Virus record (IMG/VR): IMGVR_UViG_3300025769_010106
Location: 1-64,000 of that record
DNA: 64,000 bases
Source of the DNA: a virus
Strand: one strand, 5' to 3'
The position numbers were made by a program, and so were the translations under genes. The notes beneath the pieces were generated by a model that saw nothing but the letters and a program-made list of their open reading frames with translations, ran no database searches and was not told where the DNA came from. Below are positions 5,172-58,011 of the stretch, piece after piece. Position 1 is the stretch's first letter. Each line of letters opens with the position of its first letter.

Positions 5172-5945
5172 ATGTCAATTACCACTATGGAATTCAAAGA
5201 GCGCAGTTTGCTTTTTGCACAATTAGCAAAGATTGCATACTTAGATGAAAAGGGTGCACGAGCAGCAGCCAAAGTCTTAGGATTCACAACAACAAAATTT
5301 TATGATAGGAATGGTGCACAAGCCTATCGTTTCCAAAACAAAGACGATTGTGTTATTGCATGCAGAGGTACACAGCCTACTGAATTCAATGACATCAAAG
5401 CAGATCTACGTGCACTACCAGTTATAGCTGAAACAGTAAGTAGAGTGCACAAAGGTTTTAAGGTTGAAGTAGATGAACTTTGGCCTATGATACTAGAAGA
5501 CATTAAAAAAGCAAAACAAAAACTATGGTTCTGCGGACACAGTTTGGGTGCAGCAATGGCAACTATTATGGCTAGCCGCTGTCACTTGTACGAAGGTATC
5601 CCAGTTGTAGAAGAGCTATATACATATGGAAGCCCAAGAGTTGGATGGCGTAAATATGTTAACAGTTTAAAAGTTACACACCATCGTTGGGTGAACAATA
5701 ACGATATTGTTACTCGTGTGCCACTAGCAATCATGTTTTACGTACACCATGGCGAGGAACACTATTTGAACACTTGGGGTAATGTACGTGCTCCAACAGG
5801 ATGGCAAAGGACAAAGGACAGATTCCGGGGCATGTGGTTTGGTATTAAGAAGGGACAGATTGATAACTTCTCAGATCACAGCATGGTAAACTACGTGGCT
5901 TATCTAGAAAATTATGCGAATGACTTAGAAACACCACAAATATAA
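5172..5945 (+). CDS. Class 3 lipase-like alpha/beta hydrolase
   Basis: 257 residues, full length for a Lipase_3 domain. The nucleophile elbow is GHSLGAA near residue 123. The acid is probably the Asp of NNNDIVTRVP, and the base a His in the VHHGEEHYL stretch. An oxyanion-type motif CRGTQP precedes it. It should hydrolyse acyl esters of lipids; no signal peptide is visible, so it either acts inside the cell or is carried with virions. It begins right after the large multidomain gene. A lipase among small, possibly virion-associated genes could help attack host membrane lipids at entry or lysis; this is inference. Confidence 0.85.
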   Translation: MSITTMEFKERSLLFAQLAKIAYLDEKGARAAAKVLGFTTTKFYDRNGAQAYRFQNKDDCVIACRGTQPTEFNDIKADLRALPVIAETVSRVHKGFKVEVDELWPMILEDIKKAKQKLWFCGHSLGAAMATIMASRCHLYEGIPVVEELYTYGSPRVGWRKYVNSLKVTHHRWVNNNDIVTRVPLAIMFYVHHGEEHYLNTWGNVRAPTGWQRTKDRFRGMWFGIKKGQIDNFSDHSMVNYVAYLENYANDLETPQI

Positions 5946-26691: not shown

Positions 26692-27372
26692 ATGAGAAAG
26701 ACTTCCGAAATAATCCGAGAGCGCATGCAGGCAACTAACAAGCGTTTTCATAGCAATGACAACATCAGTGATTTTATTCAGGATGGCGAACTAGAACTAC
26801 TACAGCAAGAAGTGGAAGAACGATTCCAAGAAGTTTTGGACGCTCTAGTCATTGATACAGTGAACGATCACAATACACAAGAAACAGCAAAGCGTGTTGC
26901 TAAGATGTTCGTAAATGAAACATTTGGCGGACGTTATCATCCAATGCCACGGGTTACGGCATTTCCTAATATGGGTTACAAGAGCATGTATACCAGCGGC
27001 CCTATTAGTATCCGTAGTACCTGTGCTCACCACTTCCAAAACATCGTGGGCAACTGCTGGGTAGGAATTATCCCAGAAGATGAAGTAATTGGACTTAGTA
27101 AGTTCAATCGCATCATTCACCATATCGCTGAACGCCCACAGATTCAGGAAGAAATGACTACACAGATTGCAGAAGTACTAAAAGAATATGCAAAGACAGA
27201 GCATATCGCTGTGGTAGTTAAAGCCGAGCACCATTGCATGACGGCCCGTGGTGTTCGGGAACATGAGAGCGATATGACTACCGCAGTTATGTGTGGTGGT
27301 TTTCTCACAGACCCAAGTGTTAAGCAGGAGTTTTACAACATCTGTTTAAGCATGAAGGGTCATGGCAACTAA
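26692..27372 (+). CDS. folE: GTP cyclohydrolase I
   Basis: 226 residues, E. coli FolE is 222. Converts GTP to dihydroneopterin triphosphate, the first step to 7-deazaguanines and folate. Zinc and active-site residues are present: STCAHHF (C111, H113, H114) and EHHCMTARGV (H180, H181, C182). GLSKFNRI is also typical. Preceded by AAAGGAA and a 40 bp gap. Belongs with queD, queE, dpdA and the YhhQ-like gene directly downstream. Confidence 0.96.
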   Translation: MRKTSEIIRERMQATNKRFHSNDNISDFIQDGELELLQQEVEERFQEVLDALVIDTVNDHNTQETAKRVAKMFVNETFGGRYHPMPRVTAFPNMGYKSMYTSGPISIRSTCAHHFQNIVGNCWVGIIPEDEVIGLSKFNRIIHHIAERPQIQEEMTTQIAEVLKEYAKTEHIAVVVKAEHHCMTARGVREHESDMTTAVMCGGFLTDPSVKQEFYNICLSMKGHGN

Positions 27373-27396
27373 ACTTCAGAATAGGGAGAAAATTTT

Positions 27397-28020
27397 ATGA
27401 TGAAGTTACTAGAAGGTGTAGATCGCAAGTTGGTTACCAATCTTGTTATCATGCACACAATCGTAATTGCACTTTCAAATTACTTGGTGCAGTTCAAGTT
27501 TAACCTGTTCCCAGGTGCTAACTTGCCATTCTTTGGTGAGTTTCCACTTGCAGTTGCAGCATTTACATTTCCAATTGTAGTTGTTGCCACTGACTTGACC
27601 GTCCGTATGGTGGGCAAGGAAGCAGGCAGGGCAGTTGTTGCCCTAGCAGTCATCCCAGCAATCATTGTAAGTATTTTGGTTGTTTGGGGCGGCGGTGCAC
27701 CAGTTGAGAAGGCACTACGTATTGGTGCAGCAAGTGGTGTTGCATATGGCGTTGGTACAATGCTAGACGTTTATGTATTCCAGTATATTCGTGAGAAGTT
27801 CACAGAGATGTGGTGGGCTGCTCCAGCATTTTCAACCATTGTCGCAAACATCCTAGACACTTATGCGTTCTTCTATACAGCATTTTATCCAGCACCTTGG
27901 GTACATGCTGTTGCGTTCAACCAAACAATCACAAAGATTATTGTAGGGTTGATTGTGTTCCTACCAGCATATGGTTTCCTATTAAACTATTTGCGGAAGA
28001 AGCTAGGACGTAGTCTATAA
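27397..28020 (+). CDS. yhhQ: YhhQ-type queuosine-precursor transporter (VUT family)
   Basis: 207 residues (E. coli YhhQ 221) with about six membrane helices. FPIVVVATDLTVRMVGKEAGR closely follows the YhhQ signature. E. coli YhhQ imports preQ0/preQ1. A phage copy next to folE suggests it feeds 7-deazaguanine base to DpdA, bypassing missing steps. Good GGGAGAA ribosome site; ATGATG start. Followed by a strong terminator. Confidence 0.88.
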   Translation: MMKLLEGVDRKLVTNLVIMHTIVIALSNYLVQFKFNLFPGANLPFFGEFPLAVAAFTFPIVVVATDLTVRMVGKEAGRAVVALAVIPAIIVSILVVWGGGAPVEKALRIGAASGVAYGVGTMLDVYVFQYIREKFTEMWWAAPAFSTIVANILDTYAFFYTAFYPAPWVHAVAFNQTITKIIVGLIVFLPAYGFLLNYLRKKLGRSL

Positions 28021-28030
28021 TACGTGCTGT

Positions 28031-28058
28031 GGGGGGCCTTAGTGCCCCCCCTTTTTTT
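28031..28058 (+). terminator. Rho-independent terminator
   Basis: Stem of 7 G:C pairs (GGGGGGC at 28031-28037 with GCCCCCC at 28044-28050), 6-base loop, then seven T at 28052-28058. It closes the folE-yhhQ unit. Confidence 0.9.
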
Positions 28059-28069
28059 AGGATACCTTA

Positions 28070-28351
28070 ATGCCAAAAATATATGAATCCCCAGACGGCG
28101 GTAAAACTATTAGAGAACGAGAGTTTGGTGACTATACTAATACAATTACTATAGCTGATCCTAGCACATTTGATGACAATGGTAGTTGGACAAGTATTAG
28201 TACAGGTACAATAACATTACATGATCCATGGCAAGAACAACAGGAACGTACAATGCTTATTGACAAGTATCCAGAACTAAAAGATAAGTGGGAAGAGTAC
28301 AAAGAGCTTGAAAAGCATTATAAGGCGTGGGATCTTTTATATAACAAATAA
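28070..28351 (+). CDS. Small hypothetical protein
   Basis: 93 residues, acidic. The N-terminus (MPKIYESPDGGKTI) and the C-terminal helix (YPELKDKWEEYKELEKHY) look like a short phage protein of unknown role. It follows a terminator by 12 bp with a weak TTAGGATACC ribosome site, and is followed by another terminator-like hairpin. Confidence 0.65.
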   Translation: MPKIYESPDGGKTIREREFGDYTNTITIADPSTFDDNGSWTSISTGTITLHDPWQEQQERTMLIDKYPELKDKWEEYKELEKHYKAWDLLYNK

Positions 28352-28361
28352 TCAAAAACGG

Positions 28362-28389
28362 TAGACAAGTCTTTACTTCGTGTTATTAT
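28362..28389 (+). promoter_or_regulatory. Sigma70-like promoter TAGACA-16-TATTAT
   Basis: -35 TAGACA (28362-28367), 16 bp, -10 TATTAT (28384-28389). Same spacing and -10 as the duplicated promoters at 40292 and 40629. A short dyad (AGAC AA GTCT, 28363-28372) overlaps the -35. Its transcript would meet the hairpin at 28393 at once. Confidence 0.5.
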
Positions 28390-28392
28390 AAG

Positions 28393-28421
28393 AGTATGTT
28401 CAAGGTGAACATACTTTTTTT
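28393..28421 (+). terminator. Terminator or attenuator hairpin before the subtilase gene
   Basis: A perfect 10-bp stem (28393-28402 with 28406-28415), 3-base loop, then a run of T to 28421. It can end transcription from the upstream gene. Because a promoter lies immediately before it, it could also be an attenuator for the subtilase gene at 28439. Confidence 0.75.
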
Positions 28422-28438
28422 ATGATAAAAACGAGGCT

Positions 28439-31400
28439 ATGATGACTCATTTTAAAACTATTGCAGGAGCATTGCTAGCCACCACAATGCTTACAGCGTG
28501 TCAGGGTGGCAGTTCAAATCCTGTTAAAGCTATCAATTCCGTTAAGGCTGAACTTAATCCTGTTGTAAACAGTAACTTTGGTGCTATTGCAGGCGAAATT
28601 TCTGCACTGGAAGCAATCGTAAATGAGGCAACCGGATCAGCAACTATTAGTGCTATTTTAAATCCCACAGAAGCAGATAAACGCACTGCTGAAAACATTG
28701 TATCTCGAATCGATGATGTTATTAACGGCTGGGAGGCACATAAAGCAGAATATAATCCAAAACTACTTGCTGTTAAAATGAGTTCTGAGGACTTTCGTCG
28801 TGCAGAAGCAGTTGTTAAAATTTTAAAAGAGGATCTACGTCCAGTTATTGTTGACGTTACCAATGGTAAGGGCTACGACACTGAAGCATTTGCTTTTCTT
28901 GAGAGTAAAGAAAAGATTGATGGTGTTATTGATAGTAAAAAGATAAAAATCTTTGAAAATGTAGTACCTACTCTAATTAGTTCAAACGTCAGTAGCGTAA
29001 CGGTAGACAAAACTAGTGCTGCTACCAGTCCTGATCGTCTTAAGGAAACTATTGTAGTTGATGGCGAGCAGACTGTAACTGGCGGTTCTAGCATTTCTGA
29101 TCTAACACGTACCGCTACTTGGGTAAAGACAACTACAAAGAAGATGGAGTATGATCGTAGTTGGACGGTTACACTACAAAATGTAACCACATATGTTTAC
29201 AGCGATGGTAGCACAAAAACTGAACGTAGTGAAATCCGTGAAGTACCTTATACACAGACACTTTCAGCTGCTGACATTGTTACTACACAGGACATGTCAC
29301 AGAACATTGCCTATACAGTTGAAGAACAAAACGATCCAACTACAACTGTCACTCGTGGCGAAACGGTTGTAGTAAATGAGTATGTGGATCGTGTTGAAAC
29401 TGCTACGCAGGAAGATGGTAGTAAGGTACATAACACCATTCGTACTACTACAACCACAAGCACTACGCCTGTCACTACTACACTAACATATCCTAAGATT
29501 AGTGTGTACACATACACAGATGGACATTCATTTACTCATGATGCTACAGATGAAGTGGTTAGTAGTACAGAAGATGAAGTTGTTGTCAATACAAGTGAAG
29601 CAACTGTAGAAAGTACTACAGAGCATGTTGTAGCGAGTGAAACCGTTACAAACGAAGTTATTACAGACGTAACAGAAGCTGATCCAGTATTTGATACAAC
29701 CTATGAAGACAAGACAACTAGTGAAACTGTAGACGGTAAATTAATTACTACTGTAACACGTTATTACACGACCACTGCTACTATTGTTACTACAACTACC
29801 ACAAACACAACTCCTGTGACAAAACAGATTTGGACTGATGGTACTGAGAAACTAATTCGCGGTGAAACTGTAGTTGAAACTAGTACTGAAAATACTGTAG
29901 TGACAGATAGTTGGACTAAGGTTATGAGCACCACAACAGAGGATGCTCCTGCTGATAGTACACCTATTGCAGACGATCATCCTGACATGGGCACACGTAC
30001 CGCAGGGTTCAACAGCAATCCTGTAAGCTATCGTACTTCAGAGTTCAATGGAACTTCTGGTCAGAACTACAAGCAGGCAATTAACGCAGACGTTGCATAC
30101 TCCCGTGGTTGGACTGGTAAAGGCAGTCTAATTACTATTGCTGATACTGGTTACGATAAGGATCACTCAGACCTTGCTGGTGCAGTTAAACATGAGTTCA
30201 ACACTCTAACAAATGATGCGACGTTTATGGATGACAACGTTGGTCACGGTAGTCATGTGTTGGGTATTGCGGCTGGACGTAAGAACGGTAGCGGTACACA
30301 CGGTGTTGCATTTGATGCAGACGTTGCAGTAGTTAAAGTAACTGATAGCACTGGCTACAGTTTCCAACGTGCACGAACAGGCGCTGCCTGGGCACGTGAT
30401 TTGGGTAGTGTTGCGTTTAACGTTAGTGCTAACTCACGTGAAGACTCAGCATTTAGAGCAAGTCTTACTCCAACAGGTACTACTGGTGTCCAGTATAGTA
30501 ATCACTGGTACTACGGTGAGAATGGATACAATGGTGCTGTAGACGAAGCCAAGTTGTGGGCAACTGCATTAGGTAGCGAACAGATCCTTGTGAACAGTGC
30601 TGGTAACTTTGGCAAGGATTATGTATCGGGTACTGGTCAGATGGCCCATGCTACAGATTCTAATGGCAACCTTATTATGGGCGGGCGTATGCTAATCGTT
30701 GGCTCATATGATCTTGCTAACAATAAGATTGCTAGTTACAGTAACAAGGCTGGTACAGTTTGTGCTACCTGGGACTTTACAAACAATCTCTGTAAAGATG
30801 CTGCCAAGGCAAGTGACTTCTATATTCTTGCACCAGGCGATAACATTCAGAGTGCATATAAAGACGGTACTAGTGTTAACATGAGTGGTACTAGTATGGC
30901 AGCACCTGTTGTTACTGGTGCACTTGCTATTGTACATCAGATGTGGCCTCACATGAAGGGTGAGAACCTGGTTAAACTGTTGCTGGTAACGGCAGACAAG
31001 GACTTGCCTGGCTATGCTGAACACACACATGGACAGGGTATGCTGGACTTGGACAAGGCTACACAGCCTGTAGGTGCAACTGGTATTCCTACCAGTGGAC
31101 GTACTGATGGCGAGATTGCCAATCTTGAAACATTAAGTGGTGGTGCTGGCATTGGTAATATTAGTAGCGATGCTTTTGCGGCACTAAGTAATGTTACGGT
31201 GCTTGATAGCTTTGAGCGTGATTTTACAATCAATCTAAACAACACTCAGGCTATTGATACTCGTCCTGGATCGTCAACAGAAGCACTAAGTTTTGGTGCA
31301 GACTATGACGGTTACTGGAACCTTGCTAATGCAGGCGAAGCCACTAGTGACTTGTTTGGTATTAGGACATCATTTAAGTTTGATCCAGATGCTAAAACAA

Positions 31401-32005
31401 ACGCTGACTGGGGCATGCGTACAGAGTATGATGTACATAGTAGCGAAGAAACTACTATTACTGCCGCACTTGGTATGATTAAGGAGACAGGTAAGTTCCT
31501 TAACAACGTTCAGGAAGGCTTTATGGGAGTTGGTGAGTCACACACCACAAACTATGCAGGCTTGCGTCTCAATCACAAGTTTGATGAGAACTGGTTTGGG
31601 TTTGGTAACTTCCAGTTGGGCATGACAGACGTTGAGTCATCCAAGGAGTTTAGTCTAGTAACTGGGTACAGCACCCTAGTAAGTAACAGTTGGGGTGTCG
31701 GTGCAGGTTACAAGTTTACTAACGGGTGGACTGTTGGCGCTAACTTTAGTCAGCCAATGACAGTTACAAGCGGTAAGATGAACTACAAGGTTCCAGTAGG
31801 ACGTACACTTGACGGACAGGTATTATTTAATGAAGGAAGTGCTGATGCAAGTACGAAAAATATTGAATATGATACCGGTTTGTTTGTAAAATATAATGTA
31901 AACAATGTTGCACTTGCTGGCTATGCAGAGCATCGTAGCAATGTTGCAGGCGTCGACGGTAACAACGAAGTTAACCTAGGCGTTAAATTGAACTTGAAGT
32001 TCTAA
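28439..32005 (+). CDS. Lipoprotein-type subtilase (S8) with autotransporter-like C-terminus
   Basis: 1188 residues. A signal peptide with lipobox LTAC (C21) would export and lipidate it. Residues about 190-520 are Thr/Val-rich with imperfect repeats (TTPVT followed by an aromatic-rich DG turn), like a stalk. The S8 protease triad is intact: D569 in ADTGYDKDH, H603 in GHGSHVLG, S819 in MSGTSMAAP. After about 930 the sequence becomes strands with alternating aromatics and ends in VKLNLKF, a C-terminal Phe as in outer-membrane barrels and autotransporters. This is the layout of a surface serine protease autotransporter, very unusual for a phage. Alternatives: a tail protease or a gene taken from a host. 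Confidence 0.8.
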   Translation: MMTHFKTIAGALLATTMLTACQGGSSNPVKAINSVKAELNPVVNSNFGAIAGEISALEAIVNEATGSATISAILNPTEADKRTAENIVSRIDDVINGWEAHKAEYNPKLLAVKMSSEDFRRAEAVVKILKEDLRPVIVDVTNGKGYDTEAFAFLESKEKIDGVIDSKKIKIFENVVPTLISSNVSSVTVDKTSAATSPDRLKETIVVDGEQTVTGGSSISDLTRTATWVKTTTKKMEYDRSWTVTLQNVTTYVYSDGSTKTERSEIREVPYTQTLSAADIVTTQDMSQNIAYTVEEQNDPTTTVTRGETVVVNEYVDRVETATQEDGSKVHNTIRTTTTTSTTPVTTTLTYPKISVYTYTDGHSFTHDATDEVVSSTEDEVVVNTSEATVESTTEHVVASETVTNEVITDVTEADPVFDTTYEDKTTSETVDGKLITTVTRYYTTTATIVTTTTTNTTPVTKQIWTDGTEKLIRGETVVETSTENTVVTDSWTKVMSTTTEDAPADSTPIADDHPDMGTRTAGFNSNPVSYRTSEFNGTSGQNYKQAINADVAYSRGWTGKGSLITIADTGYDKDHSDLAGAVKHEFNTLTNDATFMDDNVGHGSHVLGIAAGRKNGSGTHGVAFDADVAVVKVTDSTGYSFQRARTGAAWARDLGSVAFNVSANSREDSAFRASLTPTGTTGVQYSNHWYYGENGYNGAVDEAKLWATALGSEQILVNSAGNFGKDYVSGTGQMAHATDSNGNLIMGGRMLIVGSYDLANNKIASYSNKAGTVCATWDFTNNLCKDAAKASDFYILAPGDNIQSAYKDGTSVNMSGTSMAAPVVTGALAIVHQMWPHMKGENLVKLLLVTADKDLPGYAEHTHGQGMLDLDKATQPVGATGIPTSGRTDGEIANLETLSGGAGIGNISSDAFAALSNVTVLDSFERDFTINLNNTQAIDTRPGSSTEALSFGADYDGYWNLANAGEATSDLFGIRTSFKFDPDAKTNADWGMRTEYDVHSSEETTITAALGMIKETGKFLNNVQEGFMGVGESHTTNYAGLRLNHKFDENWFGFGNFQLGMTDVESSKEFSLVTGYSTLVSNSWGVGAGYKFTNGWTVGANFSQPMTVTSGKMNYKVPVGRTLDGQVLFNEGSADASTKNIEYDTGLFVKYNVNNVALAGYAEHRSNVAGVDGNNEVNLGVKLNLKF

Positions 32006-32017
32006 GGAGATAAGGTA

Positions 32018-32476
32018 TTGAATCTAACTACGCTGACATATGAAAATATAGAAGCATTACAGTTTGATACCAACCACGACCCCGTGAGACCCGAGCTTGA
32101 CCTTAACTTTAGGTTAGGCCCGGGCCGTCGGGTTTATGTGTTGGAAACAGACGGTAAGTATCAGGCAGCAATTTGCGTTGCCTATACTAATGAAGTACCA
32201 ACTACTGTAAAGGAACTTGACCTTATGAGTCAGGCTGCTTGTCAGGAAGATCAACACGGTTCTATTTGTATAGCATATACAGTTTGGAGTCGTGCACCAC
32301 GTGCTGGTAGAGAAATTGTGTTTCGTTTGCTAGACGAATGTCGTGCAAATCATAAAGTCAAACGTCTTATTACACTAAGTCCAAAAACGGATATGGCACG
32401 TAGGTTTCACTTAAACAATGGAGCAGTTACTTTGCAGAACAATACTGCAACTGATAACTACGAATACAGTTTATGA
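32018..32476 (+). CDS. GNAT-like acetyltransferase fold protein
   Basis: 152 residues from a TTG start at 32018, chosen because AAGGAGATAAGG lies just upstream and no ATG fits. Central strands and AYTVWSRAPRAGREIVFRLLD resemble the acetyl-CoA loop region (R/Q-x-x-G-x-G/A) of GNAT proteins, and AHHK/NHKVKRLITLSPKT the following strand. The acetyl-CoA site is degenerate, so activity is uncertain. Coupled to the next gene by ATGA. Confidence 0.6.
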   Translation: MNLTTLTYENIEALQFDTNHDPVRPELDLNFRLGPGRRVYVLETDGKYQAAICVAYTNEVPTTVKELDLMSQAACQEDQHGSICIAYTVWSRAPRAGREIVFRLLDECRANHKVKRLITLSPKTDMARRFHLNNGAVTLQNNTATDNYEYSL

Positions 32477-32910
32477 ATATTTTCAAAAATAGAAAAAGAA
32501 TTATACTAGATCGCATTGGGCAACAGCCCTATCTAGAAAGGTATTACCTGTTCCTAAAAGATCGTAAATGGTTTCCATTTAACGTCTTCTTACACAAGTT
32601 TTTACAAAGTGATCCAGACGAACTACACGATCATCCTTGGCCCTACTTCACGCTAATCTTACGTGGAGGTTATTGGGAGACTACTCCTAAAGGACGCTTT
32701 TGGCGTGGCCCAGGGCATATGCGTGTTAACGGTCCTAAGAGTCTACATCGTGTAGAACTAGAACCAGGAGTATGTGCTTGGTCACTATTTTTTCCTGGTC
32801 CTAAACTACGTGAGTGGGGTTTCATTGTAAACGGTAAATGGATGCACAATGAAAAGTATTTTGAATGGCGAAAGCAGAAGGTAAGAGATGAACAAACTAT
32901 ATCTGTCTAA
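32473..32910 (+). CDS. Cupin-like protein
   Basis: 145 residues. LHDHPWPYFTLILRGGYWE, then a later HRVEL, fits a cupin barrel with metal-ligand His. It resembles short phage cupins of unknown role. Overlaps the phosphoribosyltransferase gene by 23 bp. Confidence 0.7.
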   Translation: MNIFKNRKRIILDRIGQQPYLERYYLFLKDRKWFPFNVFLHKFLQSDPDELHDHPWPYFTLILRGGYWETTPKGRFWRGPGHMRVNGPKSLHRVELEPGVCAWSLFFPGPKLREWGFIVNGKWMHNEKYFEWRKQKVRDEQTISV

Positions 32911-33400
32911 TCGAGATATTGAAAAAGGCGTACATGATATTGTAAACTCAATGTATGCTGACAACTGGCGGCCCGATTACATTGTAGGTATTACACGAGG
33001 TGGATTAATTCCTGCTGTAATGATGAGTCATCTAACTGGTATTAAGATGCACACACTGGACGTTCGTTTGCGTGATGGCGATGAACAACAATCTAACTAT
33101 TGGATGGCAGAGGATGCATTTGGGATCTTTCAAATGGGCGGCACATATGAAGATAAGAAAATTCTTATCTTAGACGATATTAACGATACTGGTGCTACAT
33201 TCCAATGGATCAAAGAAGATTGGCCGGCAGGCTGTCATCCAAATGAACGCCGATGGGATAAAGTTTGGCATAACAATGTTCGGTTTGCTACTATTGTGAA
33301 TAATCTATCCAGTAAGTTTGAGATTGATCACGCTAGTATTGAAATCAACAAAGCAGAGGAAGACACATGGGTTGTTTTCCCATATGAGGAGTGGTGGTGA
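32888..33400 (+). CDS. Phosphoribosyltransferase (type I PRTase)
   Basis: 170 residues. The PRPP motif KILILDDINDTGAT (about residues 91-104) and N-terminal IVGITRGGLIP define a PRTase related to xanthine/hypoxanthine enzymes. It should join a base to PRPP, or break that bond. The gene lies between folE/yhhQ and queD, so it may salvage a purine or deazapurine. Ends on the ATG of the next gene. Confidence 0.85.
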   Translation: MNKLYLSNRDIEKGVHDIVNSMYADNWRPDYIVGITRGGLIPAVMMSHLTGIKMHTLDVRLRDGDEQQSNYWMAEDAFGIFQMGGTYEDKKILILDDINDTGATFQWIKEDWPAGCHPNERRWDKVWHNNVRFATIVNNLSSKFEIDHASIEINKAEEDTWVVFPYEEWW

Positions 33401-33996
33401 TGCACGTACCATTATTTGAAACACACAAAGACTGGATTACTGAAGAAGAACATGGCATGTTACAAGCATTGGTGTTGTATGCTCCACGCTGGCGTTTTGG
33501 TCAGGTAAGCGACGATACAATCCAACCAAACTATCCCATGTGGTTCCAAAACTTTTGGAATATTGGGACATTTGAGTTCAAACCAGATCAAGAGATAGTG
33601 ACCAATCTGTTATCACAGCTAAAAGATAGATTTTTAAAGCTATGTCCCAGTAATTATAAACTAGTTAGGTTTATGGCTAGCAGCAATACATTTGGTATTG
33701 ATGGCGATATCCATACAGACTGGCCACATCCTGATGTAAGCATTACCGGTGTGCTCTATACAGACAAGGTATGGGAACAGAACTGGGGCGGCGAAACAGC
33801 GCTCTACAAGGATGGCATTGTAGAAGCTAGCGAATATGAACCCAGAAAGCTCATTACGTTTGATAGCAGTATTGCCCATATAGGCAAAGGACCGCAGCGA
33901 CGTTGTAAGGAGATGAGAACAATTCTAGCGTTTCAAGCAGTTAGCGAAGACGCTCTAAATGCTAGAATGAACAAAAAGGTTGACTCTGAATTATAA
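33400..33996 (+). CDS. 2OG-Fe(II) oxygenase, prolyl-hydroxylase-like
   Basis: 198 residues from the ATG at 33400 (GTGATG junction with AGGAG upstream). Iron motif GDIHTDWPHP gives HxD, the later SIAHIGKGPQ gives the distal His, and CKEMRTILAF supplies the 2OG-binding Arg. It hydroxylates an unknown substrate; members of this family in phages are often near sugar or DNA modification genes. Confidence 0.78.
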   Translation: MHVPLFETHKDWITEEEHGMLQALVLYAPRWRFGQVSDDTIQPNYPMWFQNFWNIGTFEFKPDQEIVTNLLSQLKDRFLKLCPSNYKLVRFMASSNTFGIDGDIHTDWPHPDVSITGVLYTDKVWEQNWGGETALYKDGIVEASEYEPRKLITFDSSIAHIGKGPQRRCKEMRTILAFQAVSEDALNARMNKKVDSEL

Positions 33997-33999
33997 ATA
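33992..33999 (+). promoter_or_regulatory. T4-late-type promoter box TATAAATA
   Basis: Exact TATAAATA overlapping the stop of the oxygenase gene, 82 bp before queD. The 86 bp gap to queD otherwise holds only an AAGGAG ribosome site. Confidence 0.45.
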
Positions 34000-34081
34000 C
34001 CCTACAATATTAATCATAGAGGACTTAGTGTTCGTTCCCTCTCTAAAAATTCCGCACACTCCATAACCAAGGAGTATAAAC

Positions 34082-34555
34082 ATGGCAAAGTATATTAGTA
34101 CAAAAACATATAGGCACCTAGGTCCCGTTGCATACAGACAGTGGCGAGCAGATTCACATTGTAATCTTATCCACGGATATGCACTGAGTTTTCATTTCGA
34201 GTTTGAAACTGATGACCTTGATGCTCGAAACTGGGTAGTAGACTTTGGTGGATTACGTCCACTAAAGGACAGCTTAGAAGATTGGTTTGATCACACTCTG
34301 CTAGTAGCACAGGATGATCCAGACCGCGACACGCTACTAGAACTAGGCAAGAAAGGCCTAGCAAAGATTACAGAAGTTGAAAAGACTGGATGCGAGGGTC
34401 TATCAGACTTTTTGTATGAGTATGTAAACACAATATTTTTACCTAGTTGGGAACCTGGCACCAGGGTATGGTGCTGTAAGGTTGAGGTAAGAGAAACTGA
34501 CTCGAATATGGCTATGCGAGTTGGTCACAGAGAAGATGGAGAATTTGATGTTTAA
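34082..34555 (+). CDS. queD: QueD, 6-carboxytetrahydropterin synthase-like
   Basis: 157 residues. QueD/PTPS proteins convert dihydroneopterin triphosphate (FolE product) to carboxytetrahydropterin. Visible: ADSHCNLIHGYALSF with C27 as likely catalytic Cys and H31; VDFGGLRPLK; WFDHTLLV with H71; and a late Glu in VRETDSN. The canonical HGH zinc pair reads HGY, so one zinc His is replaced, perhaps by H26 or H12. Clear AAGGAG ribosome site. Confidence 0.88.
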   Translation: MAKYISTKTYRHLGPVAYRQWRADSHCNLIHGYALSFHFEFETDDLDARNWVVDFGGLRPLKDSLEDWFDHTLLVAQDDPDRDTLLELGKKGLAKITEVEKTGCEGLSDFLYEYVNTIFLPSWEPGTRVWCCKVEVRETDSNMAMRVGHREDGEFDV

Positions 34556-34763
34556 AAGTTTATGGAACATGTTAACTGGCTCAGGCAGTATTAAAGACAT
34601 TGTTAAGATAGCAACAGTATCAGAAGCTGAGCTCAAGAAGATGACCAAGAAGCAGATTGATGACTGGGCTGTAAATGCAGGTGTTACACTTGATCGTCGT
34701 CTTACAAAGGACAAGATGATTGCCGAGCTAAAGACACATAAATCACAAGTTAATATTACCTAA
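34548..34763 (+). CDS. Small protein with SAP/Rho-N-like motif
   Basis: 71 residues from the ATG at 34548; the longer TTG-started frame runs back into queD. The helix-extended-helix LKKMTKKQIDDWAVN...LDRRLTKDKMI resembles SAP or Rho-N domains, which bind nucleic acid. Between queD and queE in tight spacing. Confidence 0.65.
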   Translation: MFKSLWNMLTGSGSIKDIVKIATVSEAELKKMTKKQIDDWAVNAGVTLDRRLTKDKMIAELKTHKSQVNIT

Positions 34764-34772
34764 GAGGTTATA

Positions 34773-35636
34773 ATGAAAGTAAGATACACTGAAGCGTTTT
34801 ATTCAGTTCAAGGAGAAGGTCGCTGGACAGGTGTGCCCAGTGTTTTCCTTCGCATGTATGGTTGTAACTTTACATGTCCTAAGTTTGGCATTGCAAGAGA
34901 CAGTAACGAAACAGCAGAGCCCCATATCAATAAAATTGTAGATGAGATTGACAAATACAATAGCATTGATGAGCTACCACTTGTAACAGTTGGATGCGAT
35001 AGTTATGCAGCCTGGCATCCCGCATTTAAACGATTCCAGCATGATGTTGATATTGATCAACTAGTAGACGATCTGCTTGCACTTACACCAACAGGTTCTT
35101 GGACATTGGACAATGGACAGGATATCCATTTGGTTATTACAGGCGGTGAACCCTTGCTTGGTTGGCAACGAGCATATATACAATTATTCAAACACGAACG
35201 CATGAAGGACCTAAAGAATGTTACATTCGAAACTAATACTACACAGAATTTGTCTGACGATCTCAGATCGTACCTCACAGATAATCAACATGTACACATT
35301 ACATTCTCTTGTTCCCCTAAACTATCGGTTAGTGGACATACTTGGGTTGATGCTATCAAGCCTAATGTTGCTGTTGAGTACGCTAGTCTTCGTAACAGCC
35401 ACTTGTATCTTAAGTTCGTTGTTTGCGATGATGTTGACGTGGCAGAAGTTGATCGAGCTGTTGCAGAATATAGATCTGCAGGACTTGAAGCGCCGGTTTA
35501 CCTCATGCCAGTCGGCGGTACGACGGACAGTTACTTCAAAAATGGCCGCCAAGTCGCAGAGCTCGCCTTACAAAAAGGCTACAGATATAGTCCACGGCTC
35601 CACGTTGACATCTTTGGCAACGCCTGGGGAACCTAA
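34773..35636 (+). CDS. queE: QueE, 7-carboxy-7-deazaguanine synthase (radical SAM)
   Basis: 287 residues, longer than E. coli QueE (223). Start EAFYSVQGEGRWTGVPSVF is diagnostic of QueE. The cluster Cys begin CNFTC (C31, C35), but the usual third Cys three residues later is absent and replaced by PKFG. The next Cys is C75 in VGCDSYAAW, after a 39-residue insert. TGGEPLLGW and FETNTTQN are the GGE and later motifs. Product CDG feeds deazaguanine DNA modification with DpdA. No QueC seen in the window. Confidence 0.9.
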   Translation: MKVRYTEAFYSVQGEGRWTGVPSVFLRMYGCNFTCPKFGIARDSNETAEPHINKIVDEIDKYNSIDELPLVTVGCDSYAAWHPAFKRFQHDVDIDQLVDDLLALTPTGSWTLDNGQDIHLVITGGEPLLGWQRAYIQLFKHERMKDLKNVTFETNTTQNLSDDLRSYLTDNQHVHITFSCSPKLSVSGHTWVDAIKPNVAVEYASLRNSHLYLKFVVCDDVDVAEVDRAVAEYRSAGLEAPVYLMPVGGTTDSYFKNGRQVAELALQKGYRYSPRLHVDIFGNAWGT

Positions 35637-51794: not shown

Positions 51795-52088
51795 TTAAAA
51801 TATACCTATCATTAGTTTAGTATCTTCCGGTATAAGATCAGGTCCCCACTGTGGTTCCCATACAAGTTCACGTTCTACTTCTGTCACACCGTCAACATTT
51901 TTGCAGGCTTGGTATATGTCTTCGCATATTTGATCGGCAAATGGACACATAAAACTTGTTAAGCTATGCTTTACATGAACTTTAGTTTTTTCTATTTCTA
52001 TACTATATATCAAACCCAAATCGTAAACATTAACGCTTATCTCTGGATCATAGACAAGACGTAGTGCTTCTATTATCTTATCTTTCAT
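51795..52088 (-). CDS. sufT: SufT/MIP18 (DUF59) family Fe-S assembly protein
   Basis: 97 residues, full length for DUF59. VYDPEISVNVYDLGLIYSI is the family signature and the Cys in LTSFMCPFAD (C48) the conserved thiol. These proteins help mature iron-sulfur proteins. It is unusual in phages, and here sits next to five radical SAM enzymes. Coupled by overlap to the carbamoyltransferase and adjacent to the membrane protein gene. Confidence 0.85.
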   Translation of the reverse strand: MKDKIIEALRLVYDPEISVNVYDLGLIYSIEIEKTKVHVKHSLTSFMCPFADQICEDIYQACKNVDGVTEVERELVWEPQWGPDLIPEDTKLMIGIF

Positions 52089-53566
52089 GAGCAGACCTTC
52101 ACACCATACTGCTTTTCAAAACGATCTGCGTCAGCACGATCATTTACCATGGGCTCGCCACGGATGTTTAGGCTAGTGTTTAATAGCATTGGGCAGTCTG
52201 TCATTACATACCACTTTTCAAGTAGGTCCCTTGCGCCAGTACGATCATCCTTGCCTACTGTTTGTACACGACTGGTGTTGTCATAATGTACTATTGCAGG
52301 GAATAGATCTGGACGCTTACATTTATAGGTAAACTGCATATAGGGACTCGTATCCAGTCTGGGCATATCAAAATAATCGTGTGCATGCTCCTCTAATATC
52401 ATAGGAGCAAAAGGTCTGAACTTTTGTCTGCGTTTGATCTCGTTAACACGGTCTTTTATATCATCGCCGCGTGGGTCAGCAAGTAGACTGCGATTGCCCA
52501 GAGCACGTGGGCCAAACTCTGCACGACCACTTGCAACTCCTACAATACCTTCACGCTGTAGTTCGCCAATAATTTCTTCACTGGGATATTCACCGGGAAT
52601 GTTTGTTCCCAGATATGGCCCTTGCCAGTTTAAACGTTTGCCATATGCAAGAGCAGCAGCACCTAAACTACTACCACAGTCGCCAGGGTTTGGCATAACC
52701 CATAGTCTATTCCAGATATCACGAATCGCACTATTTGCAACACAGTTAAGAGCAACACCCCCCATGAACACGCAATCATCAATATCAGTATTTGTAATAC
52801 TTAATTGATGCATTGCCGTTCTGAGCATGCCTTCAGTGATCATTTGTGCAGCTCTGGCTATTTCTTCGATTGTATATTCACTGGCGAAACTGTCTTCTAC
52901 ACCAACGTGAAAATTTCGTTTAAAAATCTGTTTATGTTCATTATCTAAACTACCAGTAACAACCTCGCGATATGCATTTGGAGATCCATACGCTGCCATA
53001 CCCATGAGAATATATTCTTCTTCCATGGGTTTTAAACCACAACGCTTGGTCATTGCGCTGTAAAACAATCCTAAACTATGAGGGTAGCGACGTGTATAAA
53101 TCCTTTTATATTGTGCCCGACCTTGGTCATCGTATTCAGCACGATATGTTGACCAACAGTCCCATTCACCAATAGCATCTATTACTACCACAACAGCACG
53201 ATCAAAGGGTGATGTTTGAAACCCTGCCGCAGCATGACTTAAATGATGTCCTGAGTATTTGTCTACTTTAAGTCCGTATGGTTTTAATTGTTTAGTAGGA
53301 CTAGGGTCACCAAACACTTTACGCCACTCACCACTATATAGTTGACGTGTTTTTTTCAGCCATGGACGTTCATACCAAGCAACTAAATCAGGCGTACCAT
53401 AACCGAGTGCCTCAGCCATAATGCCTTCATTTAGTGTAGCATCATTTTTAACTTTACTATAGCGTTCGCTGTGACCTGCAAAAAGTATATTGCCTCTACT
53501 GTCCACGACACTGACACCAGCATCATGAAAGCCTGCACTCACGCCCATGTATGTTTTAAGTTTCAT
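52085..53566 (-). CDS. Carbamoyltransferase (NodU/CmcH/TobZ family)
   Basis: 493 residues. N-terminal GHHLSHAAAGF carries the metal-binding His pair of the kinase-like domain, then VVIDAIGEW, MGGVALNCVANS and FGPRALGNRSLLADPR. The C-terminal domain has RPFAPMILEE. These enzymes use carbamoyl phosphate and ATP to carbamoylate hydroxyls of sugars, antibiotics or bases. In this phage the target could be a glycan or a modified base. Overlaps sufT by ATGA. Confidence 0.92.
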   Translation of the reverse strand: MKLKTYMGVSAGFHDAGVSVVDSRGNILFAGHSERYSKVKNDATLNEGIMAEALGYGTPDLVAWYERPWLKKTRQLYSGEWRKVFGDPSPTKQLKPYGLKVDKYSGHHLSHAAAGFQTSPFDRAVVVVIDAIGEWDCWSTYRAEYDDQGRAQYKRIYTRRYPHSLGLFYSAMTKRCGLKPMEEEYILMGMAAYGSPNAYREVVTGSLDNEHKQIFKRNFHVGVEDSFASEYTIEEIARAAQMITEGMLRTAMHQLSITNTDIDDCVFMGGVALNCVANSAIRDIWNRLWVMPNPGDCGSSLGAAALAYGKRLNWQGPYLGTNIPGEYPSEEIIGELQREGIVGVASGRAEFGPRALGNRSLLADPRGDDIKDRVNEIKRRQKFRPFAPMILEEHAHDYFDMPRLDTSPYMQFTYKCKRPDLFPAIVHYDNTSRVQTVGKDDRTGARDLLEKWYVMTDCPMLLNTSLNIRGEPMVNDRADADRFEKQYGVKVCS

Positions 53567-53901: not shown

Positions 53902-54971
53902 GGTATTAATCCTAGTGCTTGCATCTGCACATTTTCGTAGTCTTCATCGTCTACAGTATAATCAAAGTAGTAGGGAACGCCATCTACTTCAATACTATAT
54001 ATGTTTAGAAGAGGACTCATCATATCCCAAATCTGCACAGGATCGGTTGTTCCAAAACTACTTAGCATATCTACTTGGCCCAGTGGCAAATATCCTAAAC
54101 TAAGTCTTGGATCTGTTATATCCTTGCCATTGTCAATCATCCATTGATGGAATTCATCTATATCTTCGTTATGCCATTTATGATCACCACCATATACTAC
54201 ATCTTTAGCCCACTCTATATCGAATTCACCACTATAATATTTTAAATCTGTAATTGCTTCGCATACTGTGTCAGTTAACATCGGAGCATCTTCGTCTCTC
54301 CATACTTCAAAGTATGTTTTTCCTATCTGACACCAGTGCATGTACACGCCACCAAACACACGATCATATCCGTTAGTCACAAAGCCTGCACGATATTCAT
54401 CTTCTAAGTGTAGACGCGGAGCGTTAAGAAATGTAGTAATCTGGCTGGGCCTTACCCACTCAGGTGCTAGGGCATCTTTAACTAAACTTAGTATGTATGT
54501 TTCCATCTCATGGCATAGGTTGTTTAATTGTCTAATACTATATTTTACTTTAGGAGATGCATTGTAATAATAATTACTTAAATTTCCAACTGTACCTTGT
54601 AATATTTCAAAATGATTATGTAAACGATTTAAAATATTGTGTTTGACATAATGCTGATGTCGAGAAAATTTATATTCTTTGGGATCAAACCAAACACTAT
54701 CAGGCGTAAAGTGTTCTTCTATTCTGTAATCCAAATCACTTTTATTAATACGTTTTATATGCTTATTAAGTTCACTAACCATAGCATGTAAGCCACGTGT
54801 CTGTTTTGGAAACCCCATAAAGCAAAAGTTCTTTTCTAGGTGTAGTCCGCGCTCAAGAATCTCTAATAGAGCAGTTTTCCATGCACGACCCAAGGGAATA
54901 TCATGGGGAGTTATTGTGTAGTCTAACTCAACACCAGTTTCATGAGGACTTTTAAGAACTATTCGTATCAA
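53898..54971 (-). CDS. Hypothetical protein linked to the radical SAM array
   Basis: 357 residues, rich in His, Tyr and Asp. Blocks such as LHLEDEYRAGFVTNGYDRVFGG and YMHWCQIGKTYFEVW look conserved. It overlaps the first radical SAM gene by 20 bp. Could be a substrate-handling partner; no family recognised. Confidence 0.65.
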   Translation of the reverse strand: MIRIVLKSPHETGVELDYTITPHDIPLGRAWKTALLEILERGLHLEKNFCFMGFPKQTRGLHAMVSELNKHIKRINKSDLDYRIEEHFTPDSVWFDPKEYKFSRHQHYVKHNILNRLHNHFEILQGTVGNLSNYYYNASPKVKYSIRQLNNLCHEMETYILSLVKDALAPEWVRPSQITTFLNAPRLHLEDEYRAGFVTNGYDRVFGGVYMHWCQIGKTYFEVWRDEDAPMLTDTVCEAITDLKYYSGEFDIEWAKDVVYGGDHKWHNEDIDEFHQWMIDNGKDITDPRLSLGYLPLGQVDMLSSFGTTDPVQIWDMMSPLLNIYSIEVDGVPYYFDYTVDDEDYENVQMQALGLIP

Positions 54972-56229
54972 TACTTTCCCACCATTTTGCTAACTCAGTG
55001 TCGCGTAATGTATCAACGAACGGCATCCCGGCTCTTGCCGTATCTAGGCGTTCCATACGTCGCTTGGCCCGGGCTCTAGCCTTAGCATAGTCTTCGGGAT
55101 ACTCTTCCTCAAACGTAGGCCGTTTAATTAAGTTCATTAATACATCACGCATTGGACCTGATGTGTCAGGTAACACATCTGTTATTATAGCATGTAATAT
55201 GTCTCTGGGCAAGAATAAAGGACTCATGGCAATATCAGGTGTGAACGCAAATGTAACTTTAGCAAGTATGTCTACACCCAAATCTGCTGCTAGTTTTTGT
55301 ATATTGCGTATCTCAAATAAGCCTGGCACGGTTAGTGTAAAGTCTATACGCATTTGCCTACGGTATTTGCTAACAGCAATACCCTGCTTGAAGTTTTCCA
55401 GCCACTGATCATATTTGAGTCCAGTGCGTATGTATTCTCCTACAGCACCAGTGCCATCCAAACTAGCACAAATCTGCCAGTCTCTTATCTTCGGCAATAT
55501 ATCAGTATAAAGGTTACAGCCACCAAACTCAATACGACTAAGGTTGGTATTGTATCTAGCGTATATACGTGGACCATCTCCTAGTTCAATAATACGTTGC
55601 ATATAACGCCAGTGCTGTTCATACATAAGAGGCTCGCCGCCTACCCAGTATATTTCTTCAACACGATGTTCTTCCACTGCACAAGCAAACTCCTGTTCAA
55701 CAGTATCTTTTTGAAACTTTTCTATTGCTTGCTTTACAGGCGTTTCCATCCAGGGTTCTATTTTGCCATCCATACGTGCTTCTGCTTCCCAACTGCTACT
55801 AAGCATTGGGCCGCACATACGACATTTAAAGTTACAGAGGTTAGTAAAACGATAGTCCCAACTCACAGGCTGCATACTAGTATAGCCCGTGTCATCTGTT
55901 GTTCGTGCTATGTCATCATACTTGTGTTTGAATAAATGCCAGAAGTAATCACGATAAACATCTGTGTTTAGTAATTTCTTGTCGCAAACCTCACACTCAG
56001 GTGGCAGTTCACCTGCTAGCATTTGACGGCGCACTCTGCGTATATGTTCACCGTTCCACCACTCATCCAGTGTTTGTGGCAAATATTCATTAGTGCCGGC
56101 GGCGGTGTCTATATACTGACGAAAGTTCTGAGCAGGTTCTCTGCTGGCACAACATAGCCTACGCTCTGTCTGTGGTGACAGATAGGTGTGCGTCCAGGGT
56201 GCCATGCACAAGGTATCAGGTTTATTCAT
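54952..56229 (-). CDS. Radical SAM protein, SPASM-like region first (A)
   Basis: 425 residues. Core motif CNFKCRMCG: C132, C136, C139 bind the SAM cluster. Before it, CMAPW (C8), LCCAS (C26, C27) and CEVCD (C79, C82) look like a SPASM/twitch-type auxiliary cluster region, here N-terminal. VGGEPLMYE matches the GGE motif. Likely modifies a peptide, sugar or small molecule. Overlaps its neighbours at both ends. Confidence 0.85.
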   Translation of the reverse strand: MNKPDTLCMAPWTHTYLSPQTERRLCCASREPAQNFRQYIDTAAGTNEYLPQTLDEWWNGEHIRRVRRQMLAGELPPECEVCDKKLLNTDVYRDYFWHLFKHKYDDIARTTDDTGYTSMQPVSWDYRFTNLCNFKCRMCGPMLSSSWEAEARMDGKIEPWMETPVKQAIEKFQKDTVEQEFACAVEEHRVEEIYWVGGEPLMYEQHWRYMQRIIELGDGPRIYARYNTNLSRIEFGGCNLYTDILPKIRDWQICASLDGTGAVGEYIRTGLKYDQWLENFKQGIAVSKYRRQMRIDFTLTVPGLFEIRNIQKLAADLGVDILAKVTFAFTPDIAMSPLFLPRDILHAIITDVLPDTSGPMRDVLMNLIKRPTFEEEYPEDYAKARARAKRRMERLDTARAGMPFVDTLRDTELAKWWESIDTNSS

Positions 56230-56791
56230 CTGCTAATGGAAATTCAAATTTCCCATCTGCTGCTTTCCTAAACAAGTCCGATACCCACTGATGCCATTCT
56301 GGTGCATAATGATGTCCCAATTTACTGATTGGCCATCGGTCGGGATGGTCGATATAGGGTATCAGATCATAAAGAGTCATATCAATCAAGCGACATTGAT
56401 TCTGCTCACAAATTGATTTCAAATCTATTAGATTCCTAGAAAAGTTTTTCCTACACCAGTCATCGTCGTGTGTTTCCATAAAATAGATTCGATTACTGCA
56501 TGTAGGAAGACTCTGATAAAACTTTCCATCTTTTTGATATTCAAATCTACTCCAATCTGGCCAAAGACAGTAGACTATGTTTGGTTTATGTTCCGGTACG
56601 AGATCTTGTGCCAGACGAACAACCTGATCACCGCTGGCTGATCCAACCCCAAAATTCTTAGCCCCTAACAGATAAGGCCAGGTTTCGTTGTTTTCTACTC
56701 CAACACCCCAGGTATGGCTGCAACCAAATGCTATAGAATCCGAATTGGTGATTTTATTCCTAAATTTCAGTGGATTTTCACTCATAGCCAA
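56222..56791 (-). CDS. SGNH hydrolase-like protein in the radical SAM array
   Basis: 189 residues. Block I is SIAFGCSHTWGVGV, with the usual GDS as GCS. The later VGSASGDQ fits block II. The C-terminal SKLGHHYAPEWHQW gives a possible catalytic His. It is likely an esterase or acyltransferase acting on the same product as the radical SAM enzymes. Confidence 0.65.
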   Translation of the reverse strand: MAMSENPLKFRNKITNSDSIAFGCSHTWGVGVENNETWPYLLGAKNFGVGSASGDQVVRLAQDLVPEHKPNIVYCLWPDWSRFEYQKDGKFYQSLPTCSNRIYFMETHDDDWCRKNFSRNLIDLKSICEQNQCRLIDMTLYDLIPYIDHPDRWPISKLGHHYAPEWHQWVSDLFRKAADGKFEFPLADE

Positions 56792-58011
56792 GACTTTCTG
56801 CCAGCTCCCATAGCTATAGCAATAGGCGTGTGTGTTTCTAGAAAACTTTCATTTCTGAATTCGTCTGCCTTTTTCATCAACCTTACAAATTTTTCACCAT
56901 CACCAGTTGGACCATTTTTTATAAATTGTATTATTTTTTTTATTTCGTCTCTGTGTTGAGGAGGGAAATGATCCTGAGTTAGCCTATTAATAACTAAGTC
57001 TTTTGCTGCTTTAGTCATCTCACCTATATTCATATGCCTAGGGTCATGTAGCATATTAAAGTGATCGTAATCAAAATTCTGTTTTGAAACCCAGTCACAA
57101 AGATCCTTTAAATAGTAAACGTTTTGAGCGTTTATTGTCATACAAATTTGTAGTTGAATATTATCATTCTGCTCTCTTAAAATTTTAAACTTTTTGATAT
57201 TTTCCTGTACCTGCTCCCAATCAGCACCATATCGTTCAAGTTCAAATCGTTTACCTACGTTATCAATACTAAATGCTATTTCCACATACTTAAATTGTTT
57301 CCAAAGATCTATATGCTGTTCAGGATAGTGTGTGCCATTTGTATTATAATGTATTTCTATATTTTTTGCCAGATCCAGATCAACAGCCCGTTGTAGGAGA
57401 TTGAAGTGTTCCTGAATCATAAATGGTTCTCCGCCAGTAAATTCAAAGTGACGAATATTTGGTAGTATAGTTTCCATATGCTCCCAAAAAATGTCACTTT
57501 CCCTAGGCCATCTTCCTTGCTTTAACCACGTATGTGCAATATTAAATTTAGTATCTGCCTTCCATTCTTTTTTATGATATTCAATTTCTTCTGCTGCCCA
57601 TTTGCTACTACTCCAACTGCCGCATATGCGACATTTAAGGTTACATATGTTACCCAACTTTAAATCTAAAAACCAAATATCTTCAGGTTGAATGTTACTG
57701 TAATCTATTTTTTCACGTTCGTGTTTAAAACGTATGTCTGTATTCATACGCTTACTGGTTCTTCCAGCATCCTCTTCGTCCCAACAACGTTGACATGTTT
57801 TAGGACGCTCACCTTTTAGAAATTGTTCACGTAAATCTTTCATATAGTCACTCTGAAAGATATCTTTTAGTGTATGTTCTTTAAGATCATATTTCTCGCC
57901 ATTTGGCTGGAGAATTTCATCTATAGCCATACAGCATGGACGAGTTGTGCCGAGTGGTGTTGTTTCTAAACTTACCCAGGGCAACATACATAAGGTTTTA
58001 GGGTTTTGCAC
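56782..58011 (-). CDS. Radical SAM protein, SPASM-like region first (B)
   Basis: 409 residues. Core CNLKCRICG: C123, C127, C130. N-terminal CMLPW (C8), RPCCMA (C26, C27) and CQRCW (C73, C76) as in protein A. TGGEPFMIQE is the GGE motif. MTINAQNVYYL resembles similar late motifs in the array. Starts by overlap with protein C. Confidence 0.85.
   Translation of the reverse strand: MQNPKTLCMLPWVSLETTPLGTTRPCCMAIDEILQPNGEKYDLKEHTLKDIFQSDYMKDLREQFLKGERPKTCQRCWDEEDAGRTSKRMNTDIRFKHEREKIDYSNIQPEDIWFLDLKLGNICNLKCRICGSWSSSKWAAEEIEYHKKEWKADTKFNIAHTWLKQGRWPRESDIFWEHMETILPNIRHFEFTGGEPFMIQEHFNLLQRAVDLDLAKNIEIHYNTNGTHYPEQHIDLWKQFKYVEIAFSIDNVGKRFELERYGADWEQVQENIKKFKILREQNDNIQLQICMTINAQNVYYLKDLCDWVSKQNFDYDHFNMLHDPRHMNIGEMTKAAKDLVINRLTQDHFPPQHRDEIKKIIQFIKNGPTGDGEKFVRLMKKADEFRNESFLETHTPIAIAMGAGRKSWL

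What the first reader, a model, noticed from the sequence alone, without database searches (positions are those of the whole stretch)
28439..32005. Lipoprotein subtilase with Thr-rich stalk and autotransporter-like end in a phage
Seen: lipobox, intact S8 triad (D569, H603, S819), Thr-rich repeats and a beta-rich C-terminus ending in Phe. Known: this is the architecture of bacterial surface autotransporter proteases. Inference: during infection the phage may place a protease on the host surface, for example to cut receptors and block superinfection, or to aid lysis. It is bracketed by its own promoter and hairpin.
Basis: partly seen in the sequence, partly recalled or inferred. Interest (0 to 1): 0.75.

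Follow-up and report, generated by a model that had tools for sequence, protein, structure and literature searches.

The report
Jumbo-phage surface protease with membrane barrel
A giant bacterial virus, and many relatives known mainly from environmental metagenomes, carries a gene for a subtilisin-type protease with an export signal and a predicted outer-membrane barrel, so an infected cell probably wears a viral protease on its surface, although nobody has tested what it cuts.

Summary
ORF 28439-32005 (+, 1188 aa) has a lipobox (LTAC21), an intact S8 triad (D569/H603/S819), a Thr-rich segment (26% Thr, residues 180-520) and a C-terminal β-domain ending in Phe. The last 223 residues are predicted as a 12-13-strand barrel (pLDDT 85.5); the best-ranked solved structures are nearly all outer-membrane β-barrels, including NalP's translocator. 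The window is part of a 108-kb fragment of a jumbo myovirus. At least 110 IMG/VR matches (contigs up to 307 kb) encode relatives, with the triad complete in 63 of 63 assessable and an export signal on almost every complete N-terminus.

By profile comparison the barrel is the C-terminal domain of a widespread proteobacterial S8 protease family (HHalign 100%, E 6e-49). It is not Pfam's autotransporter domain (3%). So it is built like NalP/SphB1, lipidated surface subtilases, but is not a PF03797 autotransporter.

Not upheld: the gene is not "bracketed" (the hairpin lies upstream; promoter-like sites are at chance level), and superinfection blocking or lysis is untested. Most likely it is a host-surface-displayed protease that trims surface proteins during infection. 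Virion localisation is disfavoured. Similar sequences are already auto-annotated in databases; I found no paper describing the class.

The parts
28439..32005 (+). Gene for the 1188-aa exported S8 protease with C-terminal barrel
   Evidence: ORF; Pfam PF00082 9.5e-31; relatives in IMG/VR
28439..28501 (+). Lipoprotein signal peptide, lipobox LTAC with Cys21 (+2 residue Gln, not Asp)
   Evidence: Sequence; lipobox found in 48 homologue rows, +2 residue G28/Q15/N4/V1, never D
28502..28978 (+). N-terminal region, residues 22-180, fast-diverging, no known domain
   Evidence: 38-62% identity to relatives whose S8 domain is 70-95% identical; no PDB match
28979..29998 (+). Thr-rich stalk, residues 181-520, possibly three degenerate ~105-aa repeats; length varies among relatives
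   Evidence: Composition; repeat spacing; length variation in relatives
30116..31036 (+). Peptidase S8 domain (residues 560-866); catalytic codons D569 30143-30145, H603 30245-30247, S819 30893-30895
   Evidence: Pfam; fold match to subtilisins at about 1e-20 and to autotransporter Ssp 8e7f at 1.1e-19; triad in 63 of 63 assessable relatives
31037..31333 (+). Linker with conserved GIPTSGR and VLDSFERD motifs and a short predicted helix before the barrel
   Evidence: Invariant columns in A1; similar motifs in many of the cellular S8-barrel proteins; helix at residues 946-951
31334..32002 (+). Predicted outer-membrane beta-barrel, residues 966-1188, 12-13 strands, terminal Phe
   Evidence: AF2 pLDDT 85.5, pTM 0.78; Foldseek top hits are nearly all OM barrels; HHalign to cellular S8 C-termini 100%
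28362..28418 (+). Promoter-like site (28362-28389) followed directly by a terminator-like hairpin (28390-28418), both upstream of the gene
   Evidence: Consensus scan, numbers not above shuffles; RNA fold of 28352-28450 has z -4.65

Best explanation
A jumbo-phage gene encodes a host-surface-displayed subtilase built on the NalP/SphB1 plan. It is made during infection, exported by Sec, lipidated at Cys21 and sent to the outer membrane. The C-terminal barrel inserts (through the BAM complex) and the Thr-rich stalk plus S8 domain end up outside, tethered by the lipid and/or the barrel. There it clips proteins on the infected cell's surface, remodelling the envelope. The benefit is most plausibly loss of phage receptors or other surface proteins, hence exclusion of rival phages or less re-adsorption of progeny. 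Shown here by computation: catalytic triad and S8 homology, export signals across the family, predicted OM barrel, homology to bacterial S8-barrel proteases, and a jumbo-phage setting. Inferred: orientation, lipidation, timing, substrates and benefit.
For: S8 domain and intact triad. Lipobox or SPase-I-type signal on almost every full-length relative, +2 residue never Asp. C-terminal model is a beta-barrel, and nearly all of its 50 best PDB hits are outer-membrane barrels, including autotransporters NalP 1uyn, EspP 8qn4 and BrkA 3qq2. C-terminal aromatic residue in 49 of 65 rows. The barrel profile alone finds 54 of 289 alphaproteobacterial genomes, and all ten cellular proteins run against Pfam are S8 peptidases. 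HHalign phage versus cellular barrel 100%, E 6e-49. The gene sits co-directionally among FolE/YhhQ-like/QueD/QueE-like genes, away from the structural block on the other strand, and keeps such neighbours in many relatives. Precedent: lipidated NalP and SphB1 process other surface proteins (PMC5472700, PMC9289746).
Against: No PF03797 match and 3% HHalign probability to PF03797 barrels. TM-scores to solved barrels are modest, 0.27-0.47 for nearly all. A subset of relatives (16 of 65 rows) carries extra residues after the barrel strand instead of a terminal aromatic. No substrate, expression or localisation data. The gene is accessory: absent from 22 of 26 relatives of the neighbouring PRTase locus that have at least 8 kb on both sides, so it is not essential to the wider phage group.
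Confidence: 0.66

Rival explanations
1. Same surface-displayed protease, but its benefit is nutritional: it breaks down extracellular protein so that the infected cell can import peptides for the large demand of jumbo-phage replication.
For: Metabolic neighbours, including a YhhQ-like uptake transporter; cellular relatives occur in alphaproteobacterial and gammaproteobacterial MAGs; aquatic origin of many contigs is my inference.
Against: The lipid plus barrel tether and single copy per record suit local surface processing at least as well. No peptide transporter was seen next to it in the genes examined.
Confidence: 0.18
2. It helps lysis or release: surface proteolysis late in infection loosens the outer membrane or S-layer and frees progeny from debris.
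For: A barrel-borne protease on the outer membrane could do this; the gene has a promoter-like site just upstream.
Against: It sits with replication and nucleotide-metabolism genes rather than with an identified lysis cassette; promoter matches are at chance level.
Confidence: 0.09
3. The protease is a virion (tail or baseplate) component that digests surface proteins on entry, the barrel-like beta-domain being a fibre- or spike-like fold.
For: Phage tail proteins can carry enzymes and beta-rich, Thr-rich shafts (general knowledge). The TM-scores to solved barrels are modest.
Against: A signal peptide or lipobox would send it out of the cytoplasm, where tails are assembled; almost all full-length relatives have one. 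It is far from the structural block and on the other strand. PHROG class is 'other: protease', not tail. Homologues are bacterial chromosomal genes. Its best viral structure hits are an S8 protein and OM proteins.
Confidence: 0.07

Closest known systems
NalP (Neisseria) and SphB1 (Bordetella): lipidated subtilisin-like autotransporters
   Same: Lipobox at the N-terminus, S8 protease in the middle, outer-membrane barrel at the C-terminus; NalP translocator 1uyn is a Foldseek hit; literature on lipid anchoring and surface processing (PMC5472700, PMC9289746)
   Different: Carried by a phage; barrel not related to PF03797 at sequence or profile level; long Thr-rich region of variable length before the S8 domain
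Cellular proteobacterial S8 peptidases with this C-terminal barrel (no Pfam model for the barrel)
   Same: Same domain order, barrel and, in many, linker motifs (HHalign 100%); three cellular members nest inside the phage clade
   Different: The rest of the cellular family lies outside the phage clade; the Thr-rich stalk is found in the window's own subclade and some other phage members
Database records of uncultured phages: BFVD A0A6J5TBB6 (Peptidase S8/S53 domain protein), PHROG 3677 'protease'
   Same: A0A6J5TBB6 shares the barrel fold, TMq 0.71, E 3e-14, and is named as S8; PHROG 3677 matches at 7.8e-30
   Different: Automatic annotation only; no paper describing them as surface-displayed proteases was found
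LasAI/LasAII autotransporters in prophages of 'Candidatus Liberibacter asiaticus'
   Same: Autotransporters listed among prophage genes (PMC10269750)
   Different: Reported there to target mitochondria, not described as S8 proteases; prophage rather than jumbo phage

Membership tests
Peptidase family S8 (subtilases) | PF00082 domain above the curated cut-off | tested here: met
   107.6 bits against cut-off 21.8, E 9.5e-31
Peptidase family S8 (subtilases) | Asp-His-Ser triad in the right motifs, conserved | tested here: met
   D569/H603/S819; 63 of 63 assessable aligned relatives
Peptidase family S8 (subtilases) | Proteolytic activity | not testable with these tools
   Needs an enzyme assay
Type Va autotransporter (PF03797) | Sequence or profile match to the autotransporter beta-domain PF03797 | tested here: not met
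   No match in 46 homologues or in the whole record; HHalign probability 3.3% to 29 PF03797 domains
Type Va autotransporter (PF03797) | C-terminal 12-stranded beta-barrel with the passenger N-terminal to it | tested here: inconclusive
   Predicted 12-13 strands, pLDDT 85.5; OM barrels are the best-ranked hits, but TM 0.27-0.47 for nearly all
Type Va autotransporter (PF03797) | Export signal and C-terminal aromatic beta-signal | tested here: met
   Lipobox; terminal Phe; 49 of 65 rows end in F/W/Y
NalP/SphB1-type lipidated surface subtilase | Lipobox with a residue other than Asp at +2 (outer-membrane sorting rule as known from E. coli) | tested here: met
   LTAC-Q; +2 residue G/Q/N/V in 48 rows; by pattern only
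NalP/SphB1-type lipidated surface subtilase | Surface exposure and processing of other surface proteins | not testable with these tools
   Needs localisation and proteomics
Cellular S8-barrel protease family of Proteobacteria | Homologous barrel fused to an S8 domain | tested here: met
   HHalign 100%, E 6e-49; 10 of 10 cellular proteins tested are S8
Phage virion (tail) protein | Match to a structural family or location in the structural block | tested here: not met
   PHROG 3677 is 'other: protease'; structural genes found at roughly 69-90 kb of the record on the opposite strand

The most novel reading that the evidence does not exclude
A widespread class of jumbo phages equips infected Gram-negative cells with a phage-made, self-displaying surface protease that removes surface proteins (receptors): a proteolytic form of superinfection exclusion or anti-re-adsorption that I did not find described.
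Probability: 0.33. Interest if true: 0.82.

Novelty: new variant of a known kind. Interest (0 to 1): 0.58.

Why it matters
Phages are known to change host surfaces with lipoproteins or sugar-modifying enzymes. A dedicated S8 protease that carries its own outer-membrane barrel would be an enzymatic and possibly broad way to remodel the surface of an infected cell. The family is large and diverse, has diversified in phages, and includes three bacterial chromosomal genes nested inside the phage clade, so phages may pass surface proteases to bacteria. It also exposes a barrel family fused to S8 proteases in many Alphaproteobacteria that Pfam does not model.

Tried and rejected
Placing the barrel in Pfam's autotransporter family: rejected. 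Finding the gene in isolated phages: only weak S8 matches. Finding a substitute secreted protein at the same place in S8-less relatives: none consistent, one porin-like gene. Sequence search of the barrel against PDB: nothing. Sequence search of the N-terminal half against PDB: nothing; Pfam calls on it failed through wrong coordinates in companion queries. Chimeric contig was rejected because many contigs, up to 307 kb, keep a single full copy and recurring neighbours. Direction of transfer between phages and bacteria is left open: the tree is a quick one, unrooted, with long branches.

Full report
OBSERVATION. The ORF at 28439-32005 (+) encodes 1188 aa. The lipobox (MLTAC21), the S8 triad D569/H603/S819 in canonical motifs, and the Thr-rich segment (25.8% Thr in 180-520) are exactly as described. 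Pfam gives Peptidase_S8 at 9.5e-31. The best PDB sequence match is 8e7f, the Serratia subtilase autotransporter Ssp. The 'own promoter and hairpin' claim does not stand. The promoter-like site and the hairpin both lie upstream and abut each other, such sites are at chance level in the region, and the next gene starts 12 bases downstream. The upstream hairpin segment does fold unusually well (z -4.65) and could be a terminator of the preceding gene.

THE PHAGE. The window is part of a 108,479-base IMG/VR record. Its DNA polymerase and baseplate wedge are closest to Agrobacterium phage Atu_ph07 and Sinorhizobium phage Phosso, of about 470-490 kb, and the record contains virion structural, baseplate and tail-fibre genes. 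It also has the MoxR plus metallopeptidase-vWA pair that PMC7824862 reports for group 2.2 jumbo phages. So it is a fragment of a jumbo myovirus. The protease gene lies on the + strand among GTP cyclohydrolase I, a Vut_1 (YhhQ-like) transporter, a PRTase, a PTPS/QueD-like and a QueE-like gene (the QueE assignment is by resemblance, from memory, with no Pfam hit). The structural genes sit at roughly 69-90 kb of the record on the - strand.

THE FAMILY. A first scan gave 36 loci and a profile scan 110 matching stretches, 80 kept. Contigs reach 307 kb, with a single full copy in each of the 13 examined. The triad is complete in 63 of 63 assessable rows. Almost every complete N-terminus has an export signal: a lipobox in lineage A and nearly all of C (+2 residue G/Q/N/V, never D) and SPase-I-like signals in lineage B. 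Forty-nine of 65 rows end in F, W or Y; the other 16 are mainly lineage C, with extra residues after the barrel. Stalk length varies: none evident in lineage B, about 340 residues in the window, over 700 in L017. Selection is purifying in every domain (dN/dS mostly 0.05-0.37). Synonymous divergence differs sharply between domains of one pair (barrel dS 0.09 versus S8 dS 1.05 against L012), so the gene recombines by domain. Within lineages A and B the neighbours recur (PRTase, QueE-like, FolE), while lineage C has its own conserved neighbourhood. In the wider set sharing the PRTase it is accessory: present in 4 and absent in 22 loci with at least 8 kb on both sides.

THE C-TERMINUS. An AlphaFold2 model from 46 homologues (pLDDT 85.5, pTM 0.78) shows a short helix then 12-13 strands. 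Foldseek against PDB ranks OmpG, OpcA, TodX, porins, and the autotransporter barrels NalP, EspP and BrkA. E-values are only about 1e-3 to 1e-2 and TM-scores 0.27-0.47 for nearly all, so 'outer-membrane barrel' is supported and the exact subtype is not. None of the 46 members matches PF03797, nor does anything in the record. As a profile, the domain finds 54 of 289 alphaproteobacterial genomes. All ten cellular proteins run against Pfam are S8 peptidases and none carries PF03797. HHalign gives 100% (E 6e-49) between phage and cellular C-termini, and 3% to PF03797 domains. Two linker motifs are shared in many cellular members. The nearest viral structures are an S8/S53 protein and a VCBS-repeat protein of uncultured phages.

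ORIGIN. In the tree the phage sequences plus three bacterial ones form a strongly supported group apart from the other cellular S8-barrel proteins. The three bacterial genes (L041, L042, L125) fall among the phage lineages. They are chromosomal, and L041 and L125 share a neighbouring gene. Phage-to-bacterium transfer fits, but the tree is a quick one with long branches, so repeated acquisition from bacteria is not excluded.

MECHANISM. The architecture is that of lipidated subtilase autotransporters. NalP is tethered by its lipid and releases other surface proteins (PMC5472700), and NalP and SphB1 are thought to rely on N-terminal lipidation for surface processing (PMC9289746). I therefore propose a surface-displayed protease on the infected cell (about 0.66). 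The benefit is most likely surface remodelling, such as receptor loss; nutrient gain, lysis aid and virion roles are rivals. Export signal, catalytic competence by motif, barrel by prediction and ancestry are shown computationally. Orientation, lipidation, timing and substrates are inferred.

NOVELTY. Similar phage proteins are already in databases under automatic names, and autotransporters in Liberibacter prophages are reported (PMC10269750). An autotransporter classification review does not mention phages (PMC9289746). I found no paper on a phage-encoded surface S8 protease in the open-access library searched, which lacks most subscription journals. Verdict: a new variant of a known kind, moderately interesting, directly testable.

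Noticed in passing
window 54952-62025 (-): Five radical-SAM proteins in one run on the minus strand, three with SPASM-like N-terminal matches, near a carbamoyltransferase (52085-53566).
   Followed up: partly
window 5172-5945 (+): Class 3 lipase domain (PF01764, 1.2e-17) without an obvious signal peptide.
   Followed up: no
window 26692-35636 (+): FolE, YhhQ-like transporter, QueD-like and QueE-like genes surround the protease gene, suggesting a 7-deazaguanine pathway.
   Followed up: partly
L199 17875-19044 (+): IMG/VR contig with a 389-aa porin-like outer-membrane protein with signal peptide and terminal Phe, 13 genes from the shared PRTase.
   Followed up: no
window 28439-32005 versus L012, L005, L013: Domain-wise mosaic divergence (barrel dS 0.09 but S8 dS 1.05 against L012; N-terminal dS 2-3 against L005 and L013), indicating within-gene recombination.
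   Followed up: partly
L041, L042, L125/L174: Bacterial chromosomal S8-barrel genes nested among phage lineages; L041 and L125 share a neighbouring gamma-glutamyltransferase-like gene.
   Followed up: partly
BFVD A0A6J5L9S5: Uncultured phage protein with a VCBS-type repeat annotation whose model matches the same barrel (TMq 0.61), suggesting the barrel carries other passengers in phages.
   Followed up: no
L025, L028, L029, L035 and other lineage C loci: Relatives with a conserved tail of some 55-75 residues after the last barrel strand, many ending near D-x-F-(V/I)-P-I, unusual for an outer-membrane barrel.
   Followed up: no
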